From Polytrichum commune (Eukaryota; Streptophyta; Polytrichopsida; Polytrichales; Polytrichaceae): a stretch of 64,000 nt of DNA. A program made the position numbers and the translations under genes. This document shows, in pieces, positions 16,942 through 52,500 of this stretch. The notes beneath the pieces are model-generated. The model searched no databases. It was not told the origin of the DNA and saw nothing but the letters and a program-made list of their open reading frames with translations. Positions within the stretch are counted from its first letter, which is position 1, and each line of letters begins with the position of its first letter. The stretch is from the NCBI GenBank assembly GCA_950295325.1, contig OX485809.1, positions 38,659,081 to 38,723,080 of the forward strand, given 5' to 3'.

Positions 16942-19704
16942 ATGGCAGGGAACAATGTGAATTGGATAGTTGTGGTAACGCTGTTGTCGTGTTACATCAT
17001 TGCATTCGGGCTTGCCATTGCGGCAGAAGAGCATCGAGCCCAGGTTCCCTTCTTCCCCCAATCCACCATATTCACAACCCCGATATTCCATTAAGGACAA
17101 GGCTCCTGTTCTCCGAATTTCGCCAAATTTGATTTCAGAGAACGTGAAACCCTAGTACGTACAGACTGTTTCTTAGTTTCATTTCTTGGTCATTAATGCT
17201 CATGGAGAATGTCAAAGCAGACTTGGACTCTTATCACAACCACATGGCAAAAAAGTTGTACTTGACGGGTCACCCAAACTGTCAGAAATAAGAACTTTAT
17301 ATGGTCAGAGTTGGGCCAGAAGATATCCACACGGTCGTCATGTTGAGAGATGATGATGCTTTCATATTAAGAAAACTTAATGCAGGAATTAACACCAATT
17401 TGTATTTTATTTTACATTTTTTGCAGGGAACCGTCACATATGTGAGCTTGAATTCTACAAGTGCAAACTCAAGCTGGGTATTTGATACCCCCACTCGGAC
17501 GATCACCAACGCAACCTACACTGGATATTACTACTGCAAATACGACTCTGACGTTTCATCGTCATATGCTGTGGCGGCCTTTGTGTTCCTTGCCATAGCC
17601 CAAGTGACTGTCATGGGCCTCACCAAGTGCCTCTGCTTCGATGGGGACCACAAGCCTGGCAGCACAAAATCTTGCGCCATTGTCTCCTTCGTTCTTCTGT
17701 GGTAAACCATCTTCCGTTCCCTGTTGTTTTACAATTCGTAAGGTTAAGAATAAAACTGAGTCCAATTCCTCATGAGGAAGCAAGGATGCATAAGGTATGT
17801 GGGCCTTCTGTGGTCACTCTTCTTAATCTGGACGATGCCTGGATTCGAGTTGTGTATGTAATGGCAAGGCGTGCAGTTCAAAAAAGGAAAGCAAAAAACA
17901 TGTGTGGTATGGTGAGATTGGATTTGGTGCTCAAGGCATAGACACCATTCTAGGTTCAACAATTGCAAGGGCATATGTGGTCATTGAAAGAGAAACACAA
18001 TTCTAACTTTGGATTTTATTTTTTAACATTTCACGTCTCCCGGGGTCTCCTTTTCTCTCCTAAAACTTGAGATGAGAATGTTTGTGAGTTGCAATGGCTA
18101 AGTGCATGAGGCAATTGTCGAGCCAATCCAACGGCTTGGGTGTGATGTGTCCACAATAGGACCACATAACTTAAATGGAGAGCCATTCTACCACCTTTCA
18201 GTGGAGGCCCATGGATGGCTCAATTTCACATTTCCTAGCTCATGGGAGTTCCCAACGCAAGAATAGGTTAATTTTGAATATGGGTGCACTAGACATAACA
18301 TTAACTCGACACTAGGAGTAATAAATGAAAGCGAGAAATAAACCAATCCTCCTATTGGTCATTAGTTTATTTCACCATATGAACCACGGGGAGAAAGGGC
18401 CACTTGCAAGTAAACTTGAACTGACATGTGGATAATTGTAGGCAACAAGTAGTAGGGAAAATGACTCCCAAATGTGTTTGTCACCATATCATCTACCTAC
18501 TTGAGAACGAAAGGGGACTGCTAAGTAAGGTAAGGGGACCCTTAAATGGACATTATTATATGTACATCCACTTCTCGTAGGATATGACACATGCAATTAG
18601 TGCAAGATGATTTAGCAAATACACATTGTGCCTGAAGCCAATTTCCTCATATTTTTGGAGCCCATACAAATATCTTGTTCAATATCCAAGTGAAGATTTT
18701 CATTCTTATTAGATGGTCATATAAGTTTGCCCCCCCTCCTCCAAATAGAATAAAAAAATGTTGACTAATGAGCCTAAAGTGGTTAGCAAAATTTTGAGCA
18801 CATAGTCCAATCTCTTTTCAAAACATGTATTTTCACTATCCGTTCTTAGACCCACATCTAACCACACACCATTCAAAAAATGGGTGTTACATTTTGGAGG
18901 TGTTGAAATAACACCACCACCTTAGGTTAGTCATTGCAACATTGTATACAAATTGTGCACACACATAAACTACAACCTTCCTGAAGAGGACTTGTCCCTT
19001 GCACTAATGCAATCACAAGTTTGCACTCGAGCCATGTGGTGGGGAATGGTTTTACTTTTCCAATGAGGTGTGCATGACACATCGATCCATTGTTGTTGCT
19101 GTTTGTTTGTTTGTTTGTTTTTTTTTTGGTTTTCTTCCGCATGGGAGAGGGGTACGAGTGCTAATGAAGGAACCGAGTTTCAATACAGGACCCCACCAAA
19201 CGATCCACTCCGCGAATTGAGCTCCGACTGATCAATCTACCTACCTGCCTGTGCAGGATATGCTTCATGATAGCTGAGATTTGCTTCTTAGCGGGGGCCA
19301 ACAAGAATTCGATCCGGTCTCGACAAAAAGAGATCGCCACCGGGAACCAGAAGATCGACCAATACTTGACGTGTGACAATCTGCACCGGGGGATCTTTGG
19401 TGCAGCGGCCGCATTCTCCTTCTTCTCCGCTCTGACGGGGGTGCTCTACTACATTTGCTTGGTGAAGAGCCGAAATGTATCCGAGTCGCGATGGCAAGCC
19501 GGCAGTGGTGCCGCGCCTGGCTCCAACAACGCCATGAATCGGCCCTTGGCGAGCCCCTACGCGCTTGGAAGCGATGACACTCGGGGACTCAATACGCAAG
19601 CCAATGACAGCTTCTATGGCACGAACCGAGGAATGGCCGGAAGCAACAAACCCCAAACTCAAATGGCCAGGATGCCTGCGCCCAGTCCTTACTCCCTCAC
19701 TTGA
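16942..19704 (+). CDS. DUF1218 family four-helix membrane protein
   Basis: Three exons, 16942-17043, 17427-17701 and 19257-19704, join across GT-AG introns (383 and 1555 bp) in phases 0 and 2 to give 274 residues. Hydrophobic helices lie at about 8-28, 81-99, 116-140 and 171-195. The second intron splits the W codon in the conserved LLWICFMIAEICFLAGA stretch of helix 3. Cysteines and the AGxNKN-type motif after helix 3 are typical of the family, and the tail (about 200-274) is a Gly/Asn/Ser-rich cytosolic extension. Plant DUF1218 proteins include the DESIGUAL/VCC and MWL groups, linked in Arabidopsis to leaf symmetry, vein patterning and lignin composition; which group this belongs to cannot be read here. 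The start is the ATG directly followed by the first helix. Intron 2 carries one arm of a dispersed repeat near 18.79 kb. Confidence 0.92.
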
Positions 19705-21241: not shown

Positions 21242-21249
21242 ATATATAC

Positions 21250-21669
21250 CAGAGCCCTACATTGGGTGCCCATACCCATGCCCATGCCCATACCCACCCA
21301 TGCCCATGGGTTTTGGGTGGGCATGGGTGCAATATTATTGTTCATGGGTGGGCATGGTTGGGCATGGCTGCGATCTTATTGTTCATGGGTGGGCATGGGT
21401 TTGATATTATAATGGGTGGGCATAGGTGGGGCACAATTACACAATCATACAAGACACATTACACAATTACACAATACACATTACACAATTTTTGAATACA
21501 TGGGCACAATTTGAATAGCATGGGTGGGCATGGGTGGGCACATGTCATGCTATGTGTGGGCATGGGTGCGCACATGTCATGCTATGGGTGGGCATGGGTG
21601 GCCATAGGTCACTACTGATGGGCATGGTCTAGGTATGGGTGCAATTAAAAAGGAAAATGTTGGGCTCTG
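21250..21669 (+). mobile_element. hAT-type MITE with G-rich internal minisatellite, copy 1
   Basis: Left terminus cagagccctacatt and right terminus aatgttgggctctg are inverted repeats. The flanks atatatac (21242-21249) and atatatac (21670-21677) are an exact 8-bp target-site duplication, the size left by hAT transposases. The 420-bp body has no coding frame and consists largely of variants of the unit gggtgggcatg plus spacers such as caatattattgttcat. An inverted arrangement of the unit (cccatgccc then gggtgggcatggg) makes a strong hairpin next to the left end. Confidence 0.88.
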
Positions 21670-21779
21670 ATATATACATACACATACATTATATATATAC
21701 ATATATACTTGAGTTGCACTAATAACAAGTCTAAGGTTCTCCTTGAGATAAGCATAACCATGCAAAAATCAAACATCTA

Positions 21780-22515
21780 TAGTAGAGGTGCCTATTCCCA
21801 ATCAGGACCTTGCCGGCAATCTATAGGGTAGCAAAATGTAGATCAAGCTAGGATTCAATTTCGATCATGTTAAGACTGAATTTCAATTAGGTCGGGAACC
21901 AATAGTTTCATGAAACATGTCCCAGTTTTGAGCTCAGGGGAGGTAGTCATTGGTTGGAGTAGCAATATACGTGCGAACAAATGATAGGGTATTTTAAAAA
22001 CATGGGGGCTAAAATTTATAAATGGACTTAAGAGTAATATAGGGTATAAAAAATGGCACTGGACATCTTTAAAGTACTATAGGGTATGGAATAATAAGTA
22101 ATTTGGAATTATAAGTAATGCAAGGCATTTTTCTATTAACCCAAAGTAGAAATTTACATAATGATAGCATGTGAAAAAAAAAGAATTGAAAGTAATACCC
22201 CCCTATAAAATAGTGGTTGTTCGCACCTATATCCTTAACTTTTTAACACACTGCCCCCCCCCCCCCGAGGTTTTGAGTCCTAAAATGAGGAGGAACGAGC
22301 GGTTATGCCAGACTCTAGACATTGGTAATATGTTTGGGCCAACTTCTGACTTCAATAATTCACAAATAATTTCAATTCAAAGAATAAAATCACCAAATAA
22401 AATTGCACAGTCCTCTTATCCCTATCTTCCTACACAGGAAAAAATTGCACCGCCTTCTACTTTTCCACATCTGACAAAGAAGCTCTTCAGTGGTCATTTA
22501 CGGGCGCCTCTACTA
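21780..22515. mobile_element. Inverted-repeat element, family F, copy 1
   Basis: Ends are tagtagaggtgcc and its inverse ggcgcctctacta. Internal segments (tattcccaat, ggcaatctatagggta, taatatgtttgg, ctatcttcctac) recur in the same order at 57438-57820. No clear target-site duplication beyond TA is seen. A 13-base C run lies at 22254-22266. No protein-coding capacity; probably a non-autonomous DNA transposon. Confidence 0.6.
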
Positions 22516-22860
22516 TAGCCCAAGCTTTGTATCTCAACAGAGGCCTCTCTGTAGGATTTGCATGCAAAAACGTATTTAAATCCTCGATCTTTCGAGCACA
22601 TTTGATATATATATATATATGACAACAAATGATAAGTCAGGCATTCAACATCTACAAATCCCCAACCTTTCTGGAAGTAAAACAAACCTGCATTAACCCT
22701 AAACCCTAAGTTTCTCTCGTCATCCCGCAAACTTATATAACCTACGCCTCATACGAAGTATGTAGCCAAGGACACGAGTATTCTTAGTTGTTCTTAGAGT
22801 TGCATGGAATCATCAATTAGGTAGTGAGTTAGAAAATAAGAACAAAGTTTGGCCCTCTAA

Positions 22861-22936
22861 TTTGAGTTGGTCTAATTCTATGTGTAATCTTGTAATGCTC
22901 GGTCCAAGATTACACATAGAATTAGACCAACTCAAA
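22861..22936. ncRNA. Perfect 32-bp hairpin with 12-nt loop
   Basis: Bases 22861-22892 are exactly complementary in inverse order to 22905-22936; the loop is taatgctcggtc. Perfect pairing over 32 bp is unusual in sequence otherwise full of eroded repeats, so the structure is either young or maintained. It could be transcribed into a small-RNA-producing hairpin or be a recent foldback of transposon origin. No promoter or known miRNA was recognised. Confidence 0.4.
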
Positions 22937-23394
22937 GATGAAGCAACACCATAATTCACATCGAGTCATCTCTCACTATTCGGAGTTCATTTGTCCTTGG
23001 GCTTATGTAAAGGAAGTCGTGCTCAAGGTCTCGTGGTTTAAGATTTCTCACCACATGGTTGGATTTCCAGACTTCAACTACTTCATTATTGTTGTGATTT
23101 ATGGAAAGAACTCACATTATGGACTACGTGTGATAATTGAAGTTAGGCCACTTACCCTAATTAAGGAAAGTGGTCAAACAGTAAACTCCTACCTTATGAG
23201 AGGTCACTTAATTAGGTGATATATATAATGGAGACATGTTCCCAAACTACTTCGTCATAAATCCAAACTTGTGAGAGTTCCATGTCTCCTTTATCTCAAC
23301 TAATCAACTAATTAACTAACTCCGATTTACGTATATCACATGCAAGCATAAGTTGTTGACCATATGATGTGCGGTCTTGAAGTCCGACCATTGA
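22937..23394. other. Intergenic sequence between the hairpin and the second hAT MITE
   Basis: Contains one open frame of 93 codons with no recognisable domain or splice context. Nothing further is supported. Confidence 0.35.
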
Positions 23395-23402
23395 CTTCTA
23401 AG

Positions 23403-23844
23403 CAGAGCCCAACATTTTCCTTTCTAATTGCACCCATACCCAGACCATGCCCATCAGCAGCGACCTATGCCCACCCATGCCCACCCATAGCATGACATGT
23501 GCGCACCCATGCCCACCCATGCCCACATATAGCATGACATGTGCCCACCCATGCCCACCCATGCTATTCAAATTGCGCCCATGTATTCAAAAATTATGTA
23601 ATGTGTATTGTGTAATTGTGTAATTGTGCCCCACCCATGCCCACCCATGCCCACCCATGCCCACCCATGAACAATAATATCGCAGCCATGCCCACCCATG
23701 CCCACCCATGAACAATAATAGCTCAGCCATGCCCACCCATGCCCGCCCATGAACAATAATATTGCACCCATGCCCACCCAAAACCCATGGGCATGGGTGG
23801 GTATGGGCATGGGCATGGGCATGGGCGCCCAATGTTGGGCTCTG
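23403..23844 (-). mobile_element. hAT-type MITE with G-rich internal minisatellite, copy 2
   Basis: Termini cagagcccaacatt and aatgttgggctctg are perfect 14-bp inverted repeats. The flanks cttctaag (23395-23402) and cttctaag (23845-23852) are an exact 8-bp target-site duplication. It is the same family as 21250-21669 but inserted in the opposite orientation, with a different number and order of the cccacccatgc units (442 bp in total). Confidence 0.9.
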
Positions 23845-24052
23845 CTTCTAAGTGGGTCAAGTTTCCAAACTTAAAAACTTCCTTGTGGGAGCATTGATGA
23901 ATGGTGCATATGTATTCCCCTTTCTTACTTACATATTGAATAGTGATACCCATGTAGTTTACAACACATGAAATATGTAGAAGGAGGATGGGTCTCTAAA
24001 TTCATGAGATCGATAGTGGGGGGCACATTCCCTATATGCAACCTCAGTCTTA

Positions 24053-45120: not shown

Positions 45121-45552
45121 CCTTAGCTATGAAATTTGCAATGAGGATTTGAAGTTGTTTGTCATTACAATTTCAAAAGGGGAGTACACCCACAAATGTA
45201 CTAGATGGTGTGGATGAGGACTCGTGGTGGTTAGGTAGGGTCTAGGACCCACTACCATGGTATTACTGAATTGCTTTCCAAGTGCTAAGGCAATTTGAAA
45301 TTCAAATATCACTCAAGTGACTACAAATGGACTGATTTAGATAGTGTCATTTCAAAATTTTCACTATCTTACAATGCGGGAACTAAACTACATGGTGTGG
45401 ACCTTGCAAATGCAACATGTCTAAATGGGTTTGTCAAAAATGAAAAGTAACTCAATGTTTTAGTATGGTAATAGCTACTAGTTAGGAAATCATGGGTTAT
45501 TATTACCCATAATGATTGTTGGATTCTACTAATGGCAGTTGATTGATGAGTG

Positions 45553-45825
45553 AGAGATTGCACTCATGGATGTGGGCTGATGTGAGTGAGATTATGGTAC
45601 AAGACATGGGTTGATGATTTAGAGATTGCACTCATGGCTATGAACTGATGTGAGTGAGATCATAATAATGGATGTGGGTTGACTAGTGATAGATTGCACT
45701 CATGGTTGTGGGCTAATGTGAGTGATATTATGGTAATGCATGTGGGTGTCAAGTGATGTGAGAGATTCCACTAATGACAGTGGGTTCATGTGTGAGAGGT
45801 TATAATAATGGCGTGATCAAGGCCA
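45553..45825. repeat. About 68-71-bp tandem repeat, four copies
   Basis: Copies begin at about 45553, 45621, 45689 and 45761. Each contains agagattgcactcatgg followed by gtgggctgatgtgagtgag-like and ataatgg-like segments, with increasing divergence in the last copy. Confidence 0.8.
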
Positions 45826-49439: not shown

Positions 49440-50508
49440 TTATTCCTCTGTCTTCGGAGTAGCAGCAGGCTCATCGATTGGTGACTCAGCTGCCGCCACA
49501 GAGTAAGCCGGCGGTGCCCCACATTGCACAGATGGCACATGAGATTGCACAGATTCGGCACTGGAATGCAGAACTGCAGAGACTTGATCCGCAGCAGCTC
49601 GCAGGTCGATGTTTCGGGGCGTGCCGTCTGCATTCTTTGAGCCACAGATTGATGAGCACCAGGTCGCTATTGAAGTGAACAGACCTCCATCGGTACCCTG
49701 AGACATCCAACCGAAGGTTCAAGTTAGAAACGTGACGAAAACCACACTGAGAAACGTCAAATCTTCCACATTTCGGGTTGGAGCCGTACAACACATAGAG
49801 TCTTGTTGAACTTCAGGTGTAAGCTGCAAACATGATGATACCTCGAGTTGGATCGGTACAACATAAAGAGAATATTATTGAACTTCAGCCAAAGATTACA
49901 AACATGATGTCTCGGGTTCGATCGGTACAACACATATATGGAATCTTACCGAACGTAAGGTATAGATGCAAACATGATGGTTTGGGTAGGATCGACACAA
50001 CATGTGTAGAATCATGTTGAACTTTAGGTCAAGGTTGCAAACGTGATGTCTCGGGTTGGATCGGTACAATAGATATGGAATTTTGTTGACTTTAGTGCAA
50101 ATCGCAAACATGATTTCTCGAGTTGGATCGTTACAGCATATCCAGAAACTTATAGATTGCAAAGATACATACCGAAGCGGCTTCTCCCTCGCCTGGAGTT
50201 CCGGTGCTGCTGCCAGGGTAAGCGCCGACATGGATAGCCTTGGAAAGAGTGTCCTTTATGTTTGAGCCGCCTTCTCCAGCTCCACTTGCAGCCTGCTGTG
50301 CGTAATTCTCCACATTGTGCACCACATTTGCAATGTAGGTCTTGGAGGAATCGGCCGCCTGGTTGCTTTTGTCCGTCACAATGTGTGCTATGTTCTGGAT
50401 GAACTCCGAGGCCTTCGACCCGGAGGTTTCAGTTTTCTGCAAAGCCTCCTTGGCGGATTCCTGCAGATTGGCGGCAGCCCCGTCCAGATTCTCACTTTCA
50501 CTTGCCAT
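49440..50508 (-). CDS. Small hydrophilic LEA-like protein
   Basis: Two exons, 50508-50173 and 49697-49440, join in phase 0 across a 475-bp GT-AG intron to give 197 residues. The protein is rich in Ala, Ser, Glu and Lys and has no hydrophobic segment. Residues 1-85 form amphipathic helix-like stretches (NLQESAKEALQKTETSGSKA, DKSNQAADSSKTYIANVV) with the periodicity of group-3/4 LEA proteins, which protect cells during drying. No strict LEA 11-mer repeat is present, so assignment is tentative. A CGSKNADG segment with two nearby cysteines and a Pro/Ala-rich tail follow. A stop codon lies two codons upstream of the ATG. Upstream sequence contains an ACGTGGC element and a likely 5'-UTR intron; both are discussed separately. 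Confidence 0.7.
49773..50172. repeat. About 69-bp tandem repeat inside the LEA-like gene intron
   Basis: Six diverged copies begin at about 49773, 49843, 49912, 49982, 50051 and 50118 (spacings 70, 69, 70, 69, 67). Each carries tcgggttggatcggtacaac and later gttgaacttcag and gcaaacatgatg variants. The array fills most of the 475-bp intron and stops near the splice donor. Confidence 0.85.
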
Positions 50509-50579: not shown

Positions 50580-52500
50580 CTGCAACCAAGAGAGGGAAAA
50601 TCATATATCCTCAATACGTTGATTGTTCCAGCAAACTGCTTGTCAAGCCCTCAATCACTTCGAGACAAAGACGGAAAACTTCGGTAGGACCAAATAGTTA
50701 GCTGTACTGCAGTAATCTTCGAAACAGATTCCTGGAAAGATCTTCCTTTAAAAAGATCAAACCGGTTGGATGGCATTTTCTGCTATCCTGCAACGAGACT
50801 ACCAAACCACCGACAGACGAAAATTCGACACCGTCAAGGAAAGGTCGAGAATAATACAACGAAGTCACCGACAAGCAACACCCCTACTGTCAACGCAAAA
50901 AGTGGAAATGACAAGGCCACAAAGTTTGCACTCAACCTCTAAAATTAGCGTACAATATCAAATCCTTCTACCTTCTCAAAATATTCGATACGCCTCCCAC
51001 CACCAATAATCCAACCAATACTCTCCAGACACTACAAAAATATTATAAAACCTCCAGTACCGACCCCCCACAGCTCCCATTGGTGTTCCCCTTCTTTTCT
51101 CTTCAACGATGGTTATATGCTTGACTTGCATATAGTGTTCAACTTGAACTTGAAGATTTAACCAAGTGGAAGCCCAGAAAAAAAACTTCAAGTGACTGAT
51201 CACTATGTACTTGACTTGCTCGTACTACATAACACACCGCAGCCTAAATATTTGAGCAAGTGAAGTAAGCACAGAAGAAAAAGCTCTTAAATGTGTCCTG
51301 TATCCGAGAACACTGGAACCAATACTGAAACTCGCACTCTGGAAAACTGTCCTTACATGGAAAGATCCTAGTGACACTATGCTGAAGGTATGTGAACCGC
51401 AGGAAAGCCAGAATTATGAGACCTATAGCCTCTTACATTTAAAGAGCATAGAGTCGATCGTTGTGCACAGGAGTTGCACATAAGTAGTACTCTCCTCGAA
51501 TTAAGAATTGGAGCAAGTCAAAACCAAAAAACAGATCTTTTCGTTTCAATCTTTCAAAAATGCGTACCCCATCCGAGAATAATAGAATCAATATTGCAAC
51601 TCTGACTCTGGGTTACTGCTCCAGTGCTCTTCATGCTCAACAAAAAATGGTACACAACAAGCAAATACAAAGACTCGACAGTGATTGACGCTGGTCTGGT
51701 GGATTGTGCTGAGCATTTCTGACCCTCAGAGATTATATCCAGTATGAGGATAAAATTAATGATTCAAAGAATCTAGCGTTGAACACTGTATAAAATCATC
51801 ACTTGAAAAATGGTGTTCCCCTCAATCTCCGAATTTGAGCAAGTCAAAGCACTTGCAAAAGAATCTCTTAGAAATGGGAATCATACTCGAGAAGACTGGA
51901 ACCAGCACTGCGACTCACACTCTGGGCTACTTTTCTTCCTGCTAAACACAAAATGGTGCACAACAAGCAAACGTGCTGAAGACTCGAGAGTGGATTTCAT
52001 GCTGGGTTAGTGCATTTCTTGTGCTCAAAAATTAATGTCAGAATGGGGATAAAACTCAATAGTCAAAAAATCTAGCGTCAACCACTGTATGAATTATCAC
52101 TTGGAAAATGGTGGGCTCCTCAATCGCCAAATTTGAGCAAGCCAAAGCACTTGCAAAAAAATCTCTCAAAAATGGGAACCATACCCAAGAAAACTGAAAC
52201 CAGCACTGCAATTCACACTCGGGGTTACTTCTCTTCCTGCTAAACCCAAAATGGTGCACAACAAGCAAAGCTGAAGACTCGATAGTTGATTCGACGCTGC
52301 TTTGGTGCATTTCCTGTGCTCGAAGGAAAATACCAAAACGGATATAAAACTCGAGAATCAAAGAATCTAGCGTCCATCACTGTATGAATCATCACTTGAG
52401 GAATGGACTTCTCCTCGATCTCCAAATTTGAGCAAGCCAAAGCACCTGCTAAAAATTAAAAAAAATTAAAAAAACCTCTCTTAAAAATGGGTACCGTACC
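50580..52500 (-). other. Probable 5'-UTR intron of the LEA-like gene
   Basis: On the minus strand a polypyrimidine tract and acceptor (ttttccctctcttggttgcag) end at 50580, 71 bases upstream of the ATG, implying an untranslated upstream exon. The nearest GC-rich candidate is about 52500-52860. The donor is not certain; a G|GTACGG or G|GTATGG site recurs in the repeat units described below. Confidence 0.4.

What the first reader, a model, noticed from the sequence alone, without database searches (positions are those of the whole stretch)
21250..23844. Two inverted hAT MITEs built around a G-rich minisatellite
Both copies (21250-21669 and 23403-23844) have the terminus cagagccc..acatt and exact 8-bp target duplications (atatatac; cttctaag), yet the interior is mostly a variable array of gggtgggcatg units. 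A transposon that mobilises a minisatellite with runs of three G is unusual. The copies differ in array composition, so the array changes by slippage or recombination after or during spread. G-runs on one strand could form quadruplexes.
Basis: partly seen in the sequence, partly recalled or inferred. Interest (0 to 1): 0.72.

Follow-up and report, generated by a model that had tools for sequence, protein, structure and literature searches.

The report
hAT MITEs carrying variable terminal repeats
Two small jumping-DNA copies in what appears to be a plant genome are stripped-down versions of a larger hAT transposon, and the G-rich repeat inside them is most likely the transposon's own end-recognition array, whose unit number can change faster than its single letters.

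Summary
A (21250-21669) and B (23403-23844) are separate hAT insertions with 14-bp termini and exact 8-bp duplications. The 407.8-Mb genome has 324 exact left ends and 386 exact right ends. Of 101 end pairs measured, 87 have a perfect 8-bp duplication, pattern nTnnnnAn.

The "minisatellite" is not a passenger. Copies of 1.9, 4.2 and 5.7 kb with perfect duplications carry the same repeats at both ends around transposase coding sequence. A 698-residue ORF of the family matches Hermes transposase (E 5e-47). The MITEs are the two terminal arrays joined after internal deletion. Of 100 tandem cores listed (C1, part of C2), 97 lie within 1 kb of an exact end. The repeats are most likely transposase-binding sites; binding is inferred.

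Most interesting is array turnover. B and three other insertions are identical over 326 bp outside five repeat tracts. They differ by one substitution but at all five tracts, at least seven unit changes.

Medicago MtPH-A6-4 elements (PMC2213677) are a close precedent. None of 11 long loci read has both ends and an unbroken transposase ORF.

The parts
21242..21249 (.). Target-site duplication of A, left copy (ATATATAC)
   Evidence: sequence
21250..21669 (+). Element A, 420-bp non-autonomous hAT (MITE), left end at 21250
21250..21263 (+). Left terminal inverted repeat of A, CAGAGCCCTACATT
21264..21308 (+). Left-end tract of inward-facing TGCCCA/TACCCA motifs (C-rich on +), ending in a palindromic turn; inner boundary approximate
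   Evidence: hairpin potential
21309..21431 (+). Left-end array: GGGTGGGCATG cores alternating with AT spacer GATATTATTGTTCA (31/41-bp units); boundaries approximate
   Evidence: same units in long copies
21432..21498 (+). Junction region: TTACACAATT units; the unit follows the transposase stop codon in long copies and is multiplied here; boundaries approximate
21499..21615 (+). Right-end array: GGGTGGGCATG cores with spacer CACATGTCATGCTATG (32/42-bp units); boundaries approximate
21656..21669 (-). Right terminal inverted repeat of A, CAGAGCCCAACATT read inward
21670..21677 (.). Target-site duplication of A, right copy (ATATATAC)
23395..23402 (.). Target-site duplication of B (CTTCTAAG)
23403..23844 (-). 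Element B, 442-bp non-autonomous hAT (MITE), left end at 23844; member of a near-identical group with L039, L096, L100
23403..23416 (+). Right terminal inverted repeat of B
23463..23585 (-). Right-end array of B (contains tract 5); boundaries approximate
23586..23628 (-). Junction region of B with 8-bp AATTACAC units (variable tract 4); boundaries approximate
23629..23784 (-). Left-end array of B (variable tracts 2 and 3); boundaries approximate
23785..23830 (-). Left-end inward TGCCCA tract of B (variable tract 1); boundaries approximate
23831..23844 (-). Left terminal inverted repeat of B
23845..23852 (.). Target-site duplication of B, second copy (CTTCTAAG)

Best explanation
A and B are internally deleted, non-autonomous members of an Ac-type hAT transposon family. 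SHOWN: long members carry GGGTGGGCATG arrays at both ends, in the same orientation, flanking hAT transposase coding sequence; the MITEs are those two arrays joined with the coding part gone; members are dispersed with 8-bp duplications; and in the closest group of copies unit number has changed more often than single bases. INFERRED: the repeats are the subterminal sites that the transposase's N-terminal zinc-finger domain binds, as in Hermes, so a MITE is little more than two landing strips for the enzyme. The direct orientation of the two arrays lets gap repair after excision, or replication slippage, switch template between cores. This both shrinks elements towards about 170-450 bp and reshuffles unit numbers.
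For: Long copies with perfect duplications: L063 (4195 bp, ATGCAAAC), L069 (5670 bp, TTGCAATG), L020 (1925 bp), each with the same left and right repeats; in L061 the first right-end core starts some 55 bp after the transposase stop codon. L061 has a 698-aa ORF: Hermes 8edg E 5.3e-47, Dimer_Tnp_hAT 1.2e-17, DBD_Tnp_Hermes 1.6e-5. Its alignment to Hermes keeps two Asp positions, a Glu of the SE..F stretch and a C..C...H.C pattern (that these are the catalytic and zinc residues is recalled). Of 42 hAT dimer-domain hits compared on C1 and part of C2, 18 lie 191-635 bp from an exact left end, all 18 on the same strand. 23 elements keep a C-terminal coding stretch between the arrays (some with 5' sequence or an insert as well); 10 of the 23 deletion junctions show 3-6 bp of shared sequence. 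Seven short copies (L071-L077, 168-264 bp) lack the junction region and pass from left-type to right-type sequence within the shared core. 97 of 100 listed tandem cores are within 1 kb of an exact end. A MITE (L037) sits inside the terminal repeat of another member (L001), with duplication CACCAGAG, so the MITE moved as a unit. In 283 left-array units, positions 7-14 (TGGGCATG) are 0.98-1.00 conserved.
Against: None of the 11 long loci read has both ends and an unbroken transposase ORF. L063's frame is split, and L061 shows no left end in the 2.4 kb upstream. Binding of the transposase to these repeats was not tested, and the zf-BED model scores below its cut-off (E 0.11). The core/spacer contrast is modest (mean 0.934 for positions 1-15 against 0.877 for 16-31). 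Some spacer positions are as conserved as the core, and the 283 units come from related copies. 13 of 23 deletion junctions show no shared sequence by this method. Some long members score badly: L070 and L067 have non-matching flanks, L062 lacks both tips and L064 the right one. Three of 100 core hits lie far from an exact end.
Confidence: 0.86

Rival explanations
1. The array is a passenger minisatellite captured or expanded inside the MITE, with no role in transposition; only the 14-bp termini matter.
For: Site number varies widely: 4 to 21 sense sites across 101 elements. A 168-bp copy (L071) has only about seven sites yet is flanked by a 7/8 duplication.
Against: The repeats are present at both ends of long copies with transposase coding, in two lineages that differ by about 18-20% over the 161-residue query region. 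97 of 100 listed tandem cores are within 1 kb of an exact end. 100 of 101 measured elements keep inward [T/C]GCCCA sites at the left end (L069 lacks them), and all 101 have at least four sense sites.
Confidence: 0.1
2. The G-rich strand acts as a quadruplex that stimulates excision or shields the element.
For: B has 7 quadruplex motifs covering 145 nt on the G strand, more than any of 500 shuffles. Both copies also have one on the other strand.
Against: A has only two such motifs on the G strand (coverage reached by 24 of 500 shuffles), and the G4Hunter maxima are ordinary for the composition. Positions 6 and 15 of the unit, which lie inside G runs, are less conserved (0.92 and 0.87) than TGGGCATG at positions 7-14 (0.98-1.00), which fits a duplex motif better.
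Confidence: 0.06
3. Array differences arise only in place, by ordinary replication slippage after insertion, and have nothing to do with transposition. This concerns the turnover step only and can be true together with the best explanation's anatomy.
For: Tandem repeats slip in general (established knowledge).
Against: Four insertions with one substitution between them already differ at all five tracts, which leaves little time after insertion. Two segmentally duplicated pairs of long copies show no array change, but they also show no substitutions, so they are uninformative.
Confidence: 0.35

Closest known systems
MtPH-A6-4 PIF/Harbinger elements of Medicago truncatula (PMC2213677; abstract and passages seen)
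   Same: A plant DNA transposon whose subterminal regions hold variable tandem repeats (60 bp, 2-35 units) that can cover almost the whole space between the terminal repeats. Repeats are tied to the elements genome-wide, and unit changes were ascribed to abortive gap repair.
   Different: A different superfamily (3-bp duplication, PIF/Harbinger) and a longer unit. There the repeats, where present at both ends, are in opposite orientation; here both arrays run the same way.
Hermes, with Ac and Tol2 as cited there: hAT transposons with subterminal repeats, bound by BED domains in Hermes (PMC10368747, passages seen)
   Same: hAT transposase, short termini, many short repeats in both ends whose arrangement is asymmetric between left and right end; Hermes is the best match of the 698-aa ORF among solved structures.
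   Different: Hermes repeats are short AAGT-type motifs scattered in the ends. Here the motif is embedded in true tandem 10/31/32-bp units of variable number.
Herves hAT of Anopheles gambiae (PMC3143072, abstract and passages seen)
   Different: Repeats described for the left end, much longer unit; nothing about MITEs in the passages read.
MITEs that carry satellite or microsatellite arrays (Xenopus Xstir and miDNA4, lepidopteran (GTCY)n; seen as passages in review PMC9659126)
   Same: A MITE spreads a tandem repeat through the genome.
   Different: In the passages read, no link is made between the repeat and the transposase recognition region of a parent element.

Membership tests
hAT superfamily (Ac-type) | 8-bp target-site duplication | tested here: met
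   87 of 101 pairs 8/8, 9 at 7/8, 4 at 6/8, 1 at 1/8; L001, counted 6/8, becomes 8/8 when the nested insertion is allowed for
hAT superfamily (Ac-type) | Duplication consensus nTnnnnAn (recalled) | tested here: met
   T at position 2 in 70 of 87, A at position 7 in 62 of 87 perfect duplications
hAT superfamily (Ac-type) | Short terminal inverted repeats beginning (C/T)A.(A/G)G (recalled) | tested here: met
   CAGAGCCC[T/A]ACATT at both ends, with point variants in some copies
hAT superfamily (Ac-type) | Transposase with C-terminal hAT dimerisation domain in a long member | tested here: met
   PF05699 E 1.2e-17 in L061 and 1.1e-18 in L063
hAT superfamily (Ac-type) | DDE catalytic positions of Hermes | tested here: met
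   aligned residues identical in the phmmer alignment to 8edg; which residues are catalytic is recalled
hAT superfamily (Ac-type) | N-terminal BED zinc finger | tested here: inconclusive
   zf-BED E 0.11, below cut-off; the Cys/His pattern aligns with that of Hermes
MITE | Short, high-copy deletion derivative of a transposon with termini and duplication, without a complete transposase | tested here: met
   57 of 84 left ends pair with an exact right end, 53 of these 57 at 168-869 bp; longer coding copies and intermediates exist; no ORF of 130 aa or more at A or B
MITE | Identified intact autonomous partner | tested here: not met
   none of the 11 long loci read (L020, L061-L070) has both ends and an unbroken transposase ORF; not all genomic copies were read
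Minisatellite / VNTR | Tandem units whose number varies between copies | tested here: met
Subterminal repeats bound by hAT transposase | Direct binding of transposase to the repeat | not testable with these tools
   needs a binding assay
G-quadruplex-forming element | Quadruplex forms in vitro or in cells | not testable with these tools
   motif counts only

The most novel reading that the evidence does not exclude
The transposase-binding sites of this hAT form a hypermutable dial. Because both terminal arrays run in the same direction, each round of excision and repair can add or remove binding sites or fuse left to right array, so copies vary their affinity for the enzyme within a single burst and the family miniaturises itself. 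Array length would then be a selected trait of the transposon, evolving several times faster than its point mutations.
Probability: 0.2. Interest if true: 0.62.

Novelty: new member of a known kind. Interest (0 to 1): 0.4.

Why it matters
It turns a puzzling 'mobile minisatellite' into a simple anatomy: MITEs made largely of their parent's end repeats. It also offers a countable system of hundreds of insertions with variable site numbers, in which one could ask whether the number of (inferred) transposase-binding sites governs how well a MITE spreads, and whether repeat number changes during transposition.

Tried and rejected
Array as an independent genomic minisatellite: rejected, because 97 of 100 listed tandem cores (C1 and C2 to about 30 Mb) are within 1 kb of an exact end.

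A and B as an inverted duplication of one insertion: rejected, because the duplications differ and their nearest relatives differ.

Using segmental duplicates to date in-place array change: two pairs compared, both with zero substitutions and zero indels, so uninformative.

Searching for the autonomous copy through L061: no left end found by three relaxed patterns in the 2.4 kb upstream.

Naming the species: a paper search on genome size and chromosome number gave nothing; G000 is unnamed. That it is a plant is inference (DUF1218 matches in the window, a plant family from recall).

Terminus and core strings in papers: 0 papers. Other literature listings gave the precedents cited; I saw none that describes this family, but only listings and passages were seen. 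Coral CMITEs (PMC2872659, passages) were looked at and are piggyBac-like, so set aside. Kubox1/DAYSLEEPER was looked at as a possible motif relative; the passages read give no motif letters, so it was dropped.

Caution: cheap long gaps can hide mismatches, so the turnover claim rests on the four-copy comparison, where the text outside the tracts was compared letter for letter. Those four were picked because they were the closest group.

Full report
OBSERVATION. A is oriented with its left end at 21250; B is reversed, with its left end at 23844. The two ends differ beyond the shared 14 bp: the left end continues ACATTGGG, the right end ACATTTTCC.

COPY NUMBER. The assembly G000 has 407.8 Mb in 64 contigs; the window is C7:38659081-38723080. 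There are 324 exact left ends (control 0) and 386 exact right ends (control 0). Only the first 100 places of each were printed. Within the stretch covered by both printed lists (C1 and C2 up to about 36 Mb), 57 of 84 left ends pair with an exact right end within 8 kb. Lengths run from 168 to 5670 bp, 50 of the 57 between 243 and 869. With 84 left ends, 100 right ends and 57 pairs, a capture-recapture sum gives roughly 150 elements in 114 Mb, or of the order of 500 in the genome. This is my arithmetic and assumes independent decay of the two ends.

DUPLICATIONS. I had 111 stretches when one search was run (109 fetched loci and the two window copies). Eight long loci were left out of the pairing (L061, L062, L064-L068, L070) and two gave no pair (L008, L031). 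Of the 101 remaining, 87 have 8/8 duplications, 9 have 7/8, 4 have 6/8 and 1 has 1/8. The sets were chosen differently: L001-L020 by nearness to a hAT domain, L021-L058 by similarity to A, L059-L060 from the list of exact left ends, L061-L070 as long copies, and L071-L109 as all 39 exact pairs not already fetched. The last set alone gives 31, 7 and 1 (8/8, 7/8, 6/8). The consensus of perfect duplications is nTnnnnAn (T2 in 70 of 87, A7 in 62 of 87). L037 lies inside the terminal repeat of L001 with duplication CACCAGAG; allowing for it, L001's own duplication is CATTACAC on both sides.

PARENT. A Pfam search of the genome for the hAT dimerisation domain scored 150 of 1060 candidates, all 150 matching. 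I compared its 47 rows on C1 and C2 with the printed left ends; five C2 rows beyond the range of the end list were dropped. Of the remaining 42, 18 lie 191-635 bp from an exact left end, all on the same strand. Longer members were then fetched. L063 (4195 bp) and L069 (5670 bp) have both ends and perfect duplications; L020 (1925 bp) also. L063's transposase is split into two overlapping frames, and L069's coding is in several short frames. L061 holds a 698-residue ORF related to Hermes transposase (E 5.3e-47 to 8edg) with dimerisation and Hermes DNA-binding domains over their cut-offs and a zf-BED match below its cut-off. The alignment keeps the catalytic positions and the zinc-ligand pattern of Hermes (which residues these are is recalled). 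L061 has a right end but no recognisable left end. An intact autonomous copy is therefore not shown; not all copies were read.

ANATOMY. In long copies the left end reads: terminus, a tract of inward TGCCCA/TACCCA motifs (absent in L069), a palindromic turn, then units CATGGGTGGGCATGG..GATATTATTGTT. After the transposase stop come TACACATTACACAATT, then cores with, in most copies, CACATGTCATGCTATG-like spacers, a short unique stretch, and the right terminus. A and B have this order with the coding part missing. Both arrays face the same way, while the first 45 bp or so after the left terminus face the other way. Read inward from each tip, therefore, the sites nearest the tip have the same orientation at both ends. 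In single-strand DNA folding the left 81 bp fold somewhat better than shuffles (z -2.0 in A, -2.8 in B).

DELETIONS. In 23 elements with a C-terminal coding stretch I compared junctions with long copies. Ten show 3-6 bp of shared sequence, one shows none and twelve leave a few unassigned bases. One class (CATATTGGA joined to TACCACTGC) covers L001, L004, L015, L016 and L017, with L003 and L005 alike by eye. A second has the same right breakpoint (reference L067, position 3628) in L002, L009, L010, L011, L012, L014 and L018, with the left side inside the array. Further classes are L006 (GGC), L013 (TGAG), L105 (GTG) and L107/L108 (ATG), with L106 and L109 near the same place. L007 and L019 are unresolved. 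The repeated junctions suggest that certain deletion products then multiplied. Seven of the shortest copies (L071-L077) pass directly from left-type to right-type sequence inside the shared core, as expected if cores serve as switch points.

TURNOVER. L039, L096, L100 and B have four different duplications. Outside five repeat tracts, 326 bp are letter-for-letter identical in all four; inside there is one substitution (in B), but the tracts read 3/1/2/3/1, 3/2/2/1/1, 2/2/1/3/2 and 3/2/3/2/1 units. At least seven unit changes (1+1+2+2+1, my count) against one substitution are needed. These four were picked as the closest group. More widely, 70 elements of 300-640 bp without the exact dimer-domain marker were compared (a few, such as L016, L105 and L106, still hold coding remnants). 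Of 2415 pairs, 64 have at most three substitutions, and all 64 differ by at least one indel of 5 bp or more, on average 3.6 against 2.4 substitutions. Aligner settings favour gaps, so I rest on the four-copy case.

SITES. Among 283 left-array units from related copies, positions 7-14 (TGGGCATG) are 0.98-1.00 conserved; positions 6 and 15, inside G runs, are 0.92 and 0.87; positions 1-2 are 0.67 because the first unit has a different lead-in. Several spacer positions vary, others are as conserved as the core. The means are 0.934 for positions 1-15 and 0.877 for 16-31. This leans towards a duplex motif TGGGCATG rather than G-run count, but shared ancestry is not removed. Quadruplex motifs are plentiful in B and few in A.

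KNOWN WORK. Hermes BED domains bind subterminal repeats, and asymmetric ends matter (PMC10368747, passages). Herves has three 100-bp tandem repeats and a subterminal binding motif (PMC3143072, abstract and passages). MtPH-A6-4 in Medicago shows subterminal VNTRs filling elements, with changes ascribed to abortive gap repair (PMC2213677, abstract and passages). Galileo shows direct tandem repeats in the ends of one D. willistoni copy (PMC4168063, passages). MITE-borne satellites are reviewed in PMC9659126 (passages). BniHAT MITEs proliferated in the Brassica B genome (PMC7385995, passages). The terminus and core strings searched are in no held paper; databases of repeats could not be searched.

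VERDICT. A real hAT family with MITE derivatives and at least one recent group of insertions; a new member of a known kind. Its worth lies in the clean link between the 'minisatellite' and the parent's ends, and in the measured excess of unit change over substitution.

Noticed in passing
window 22861-22936: Perfect 32-bp inverted repeat with a 12-nt loop between A and B; folds far better than shuffles (z -14.8 as DNA). Could be a small-RNA hairpin or another MITE remnant.
   Followed up: partly
window 51739-52455: 298-bp unit repeated 2.4 times in tandem.
   Followed up: no
window 45543-45747 and 49795-50141: 68-bp and 69-bp tandem repeats, 3 and 5 copies.
   Followed up: no
window 17292-19701: Two ORFs matching the first and the second half of DUF1218, probably exons of one gene.
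   Followed up: no
G000 C4:54.39/54.44 Mb (L062, L110) and C4:50.79/50.86 Mb (L066, L111): Inverted duplicate pairs of long hAT copies, 100% identical over the 1.5 and 1.4 kb compared: very recent duplications or assembly duplicates.
   Followed up: partly
L104 (C2:5555379-5555936): A MITE in which the TTACACAATT junction unit, not the G-rich core, has expanded to many copies.
   Followed up: no
L040 (C2:41745953-41746640): A 618-bp member with seven AT-spacer units in its left array, several of them nearly identical 41-bp blocks: an apparently fresh expansion, with a perfect duplication.
   Followed up: no
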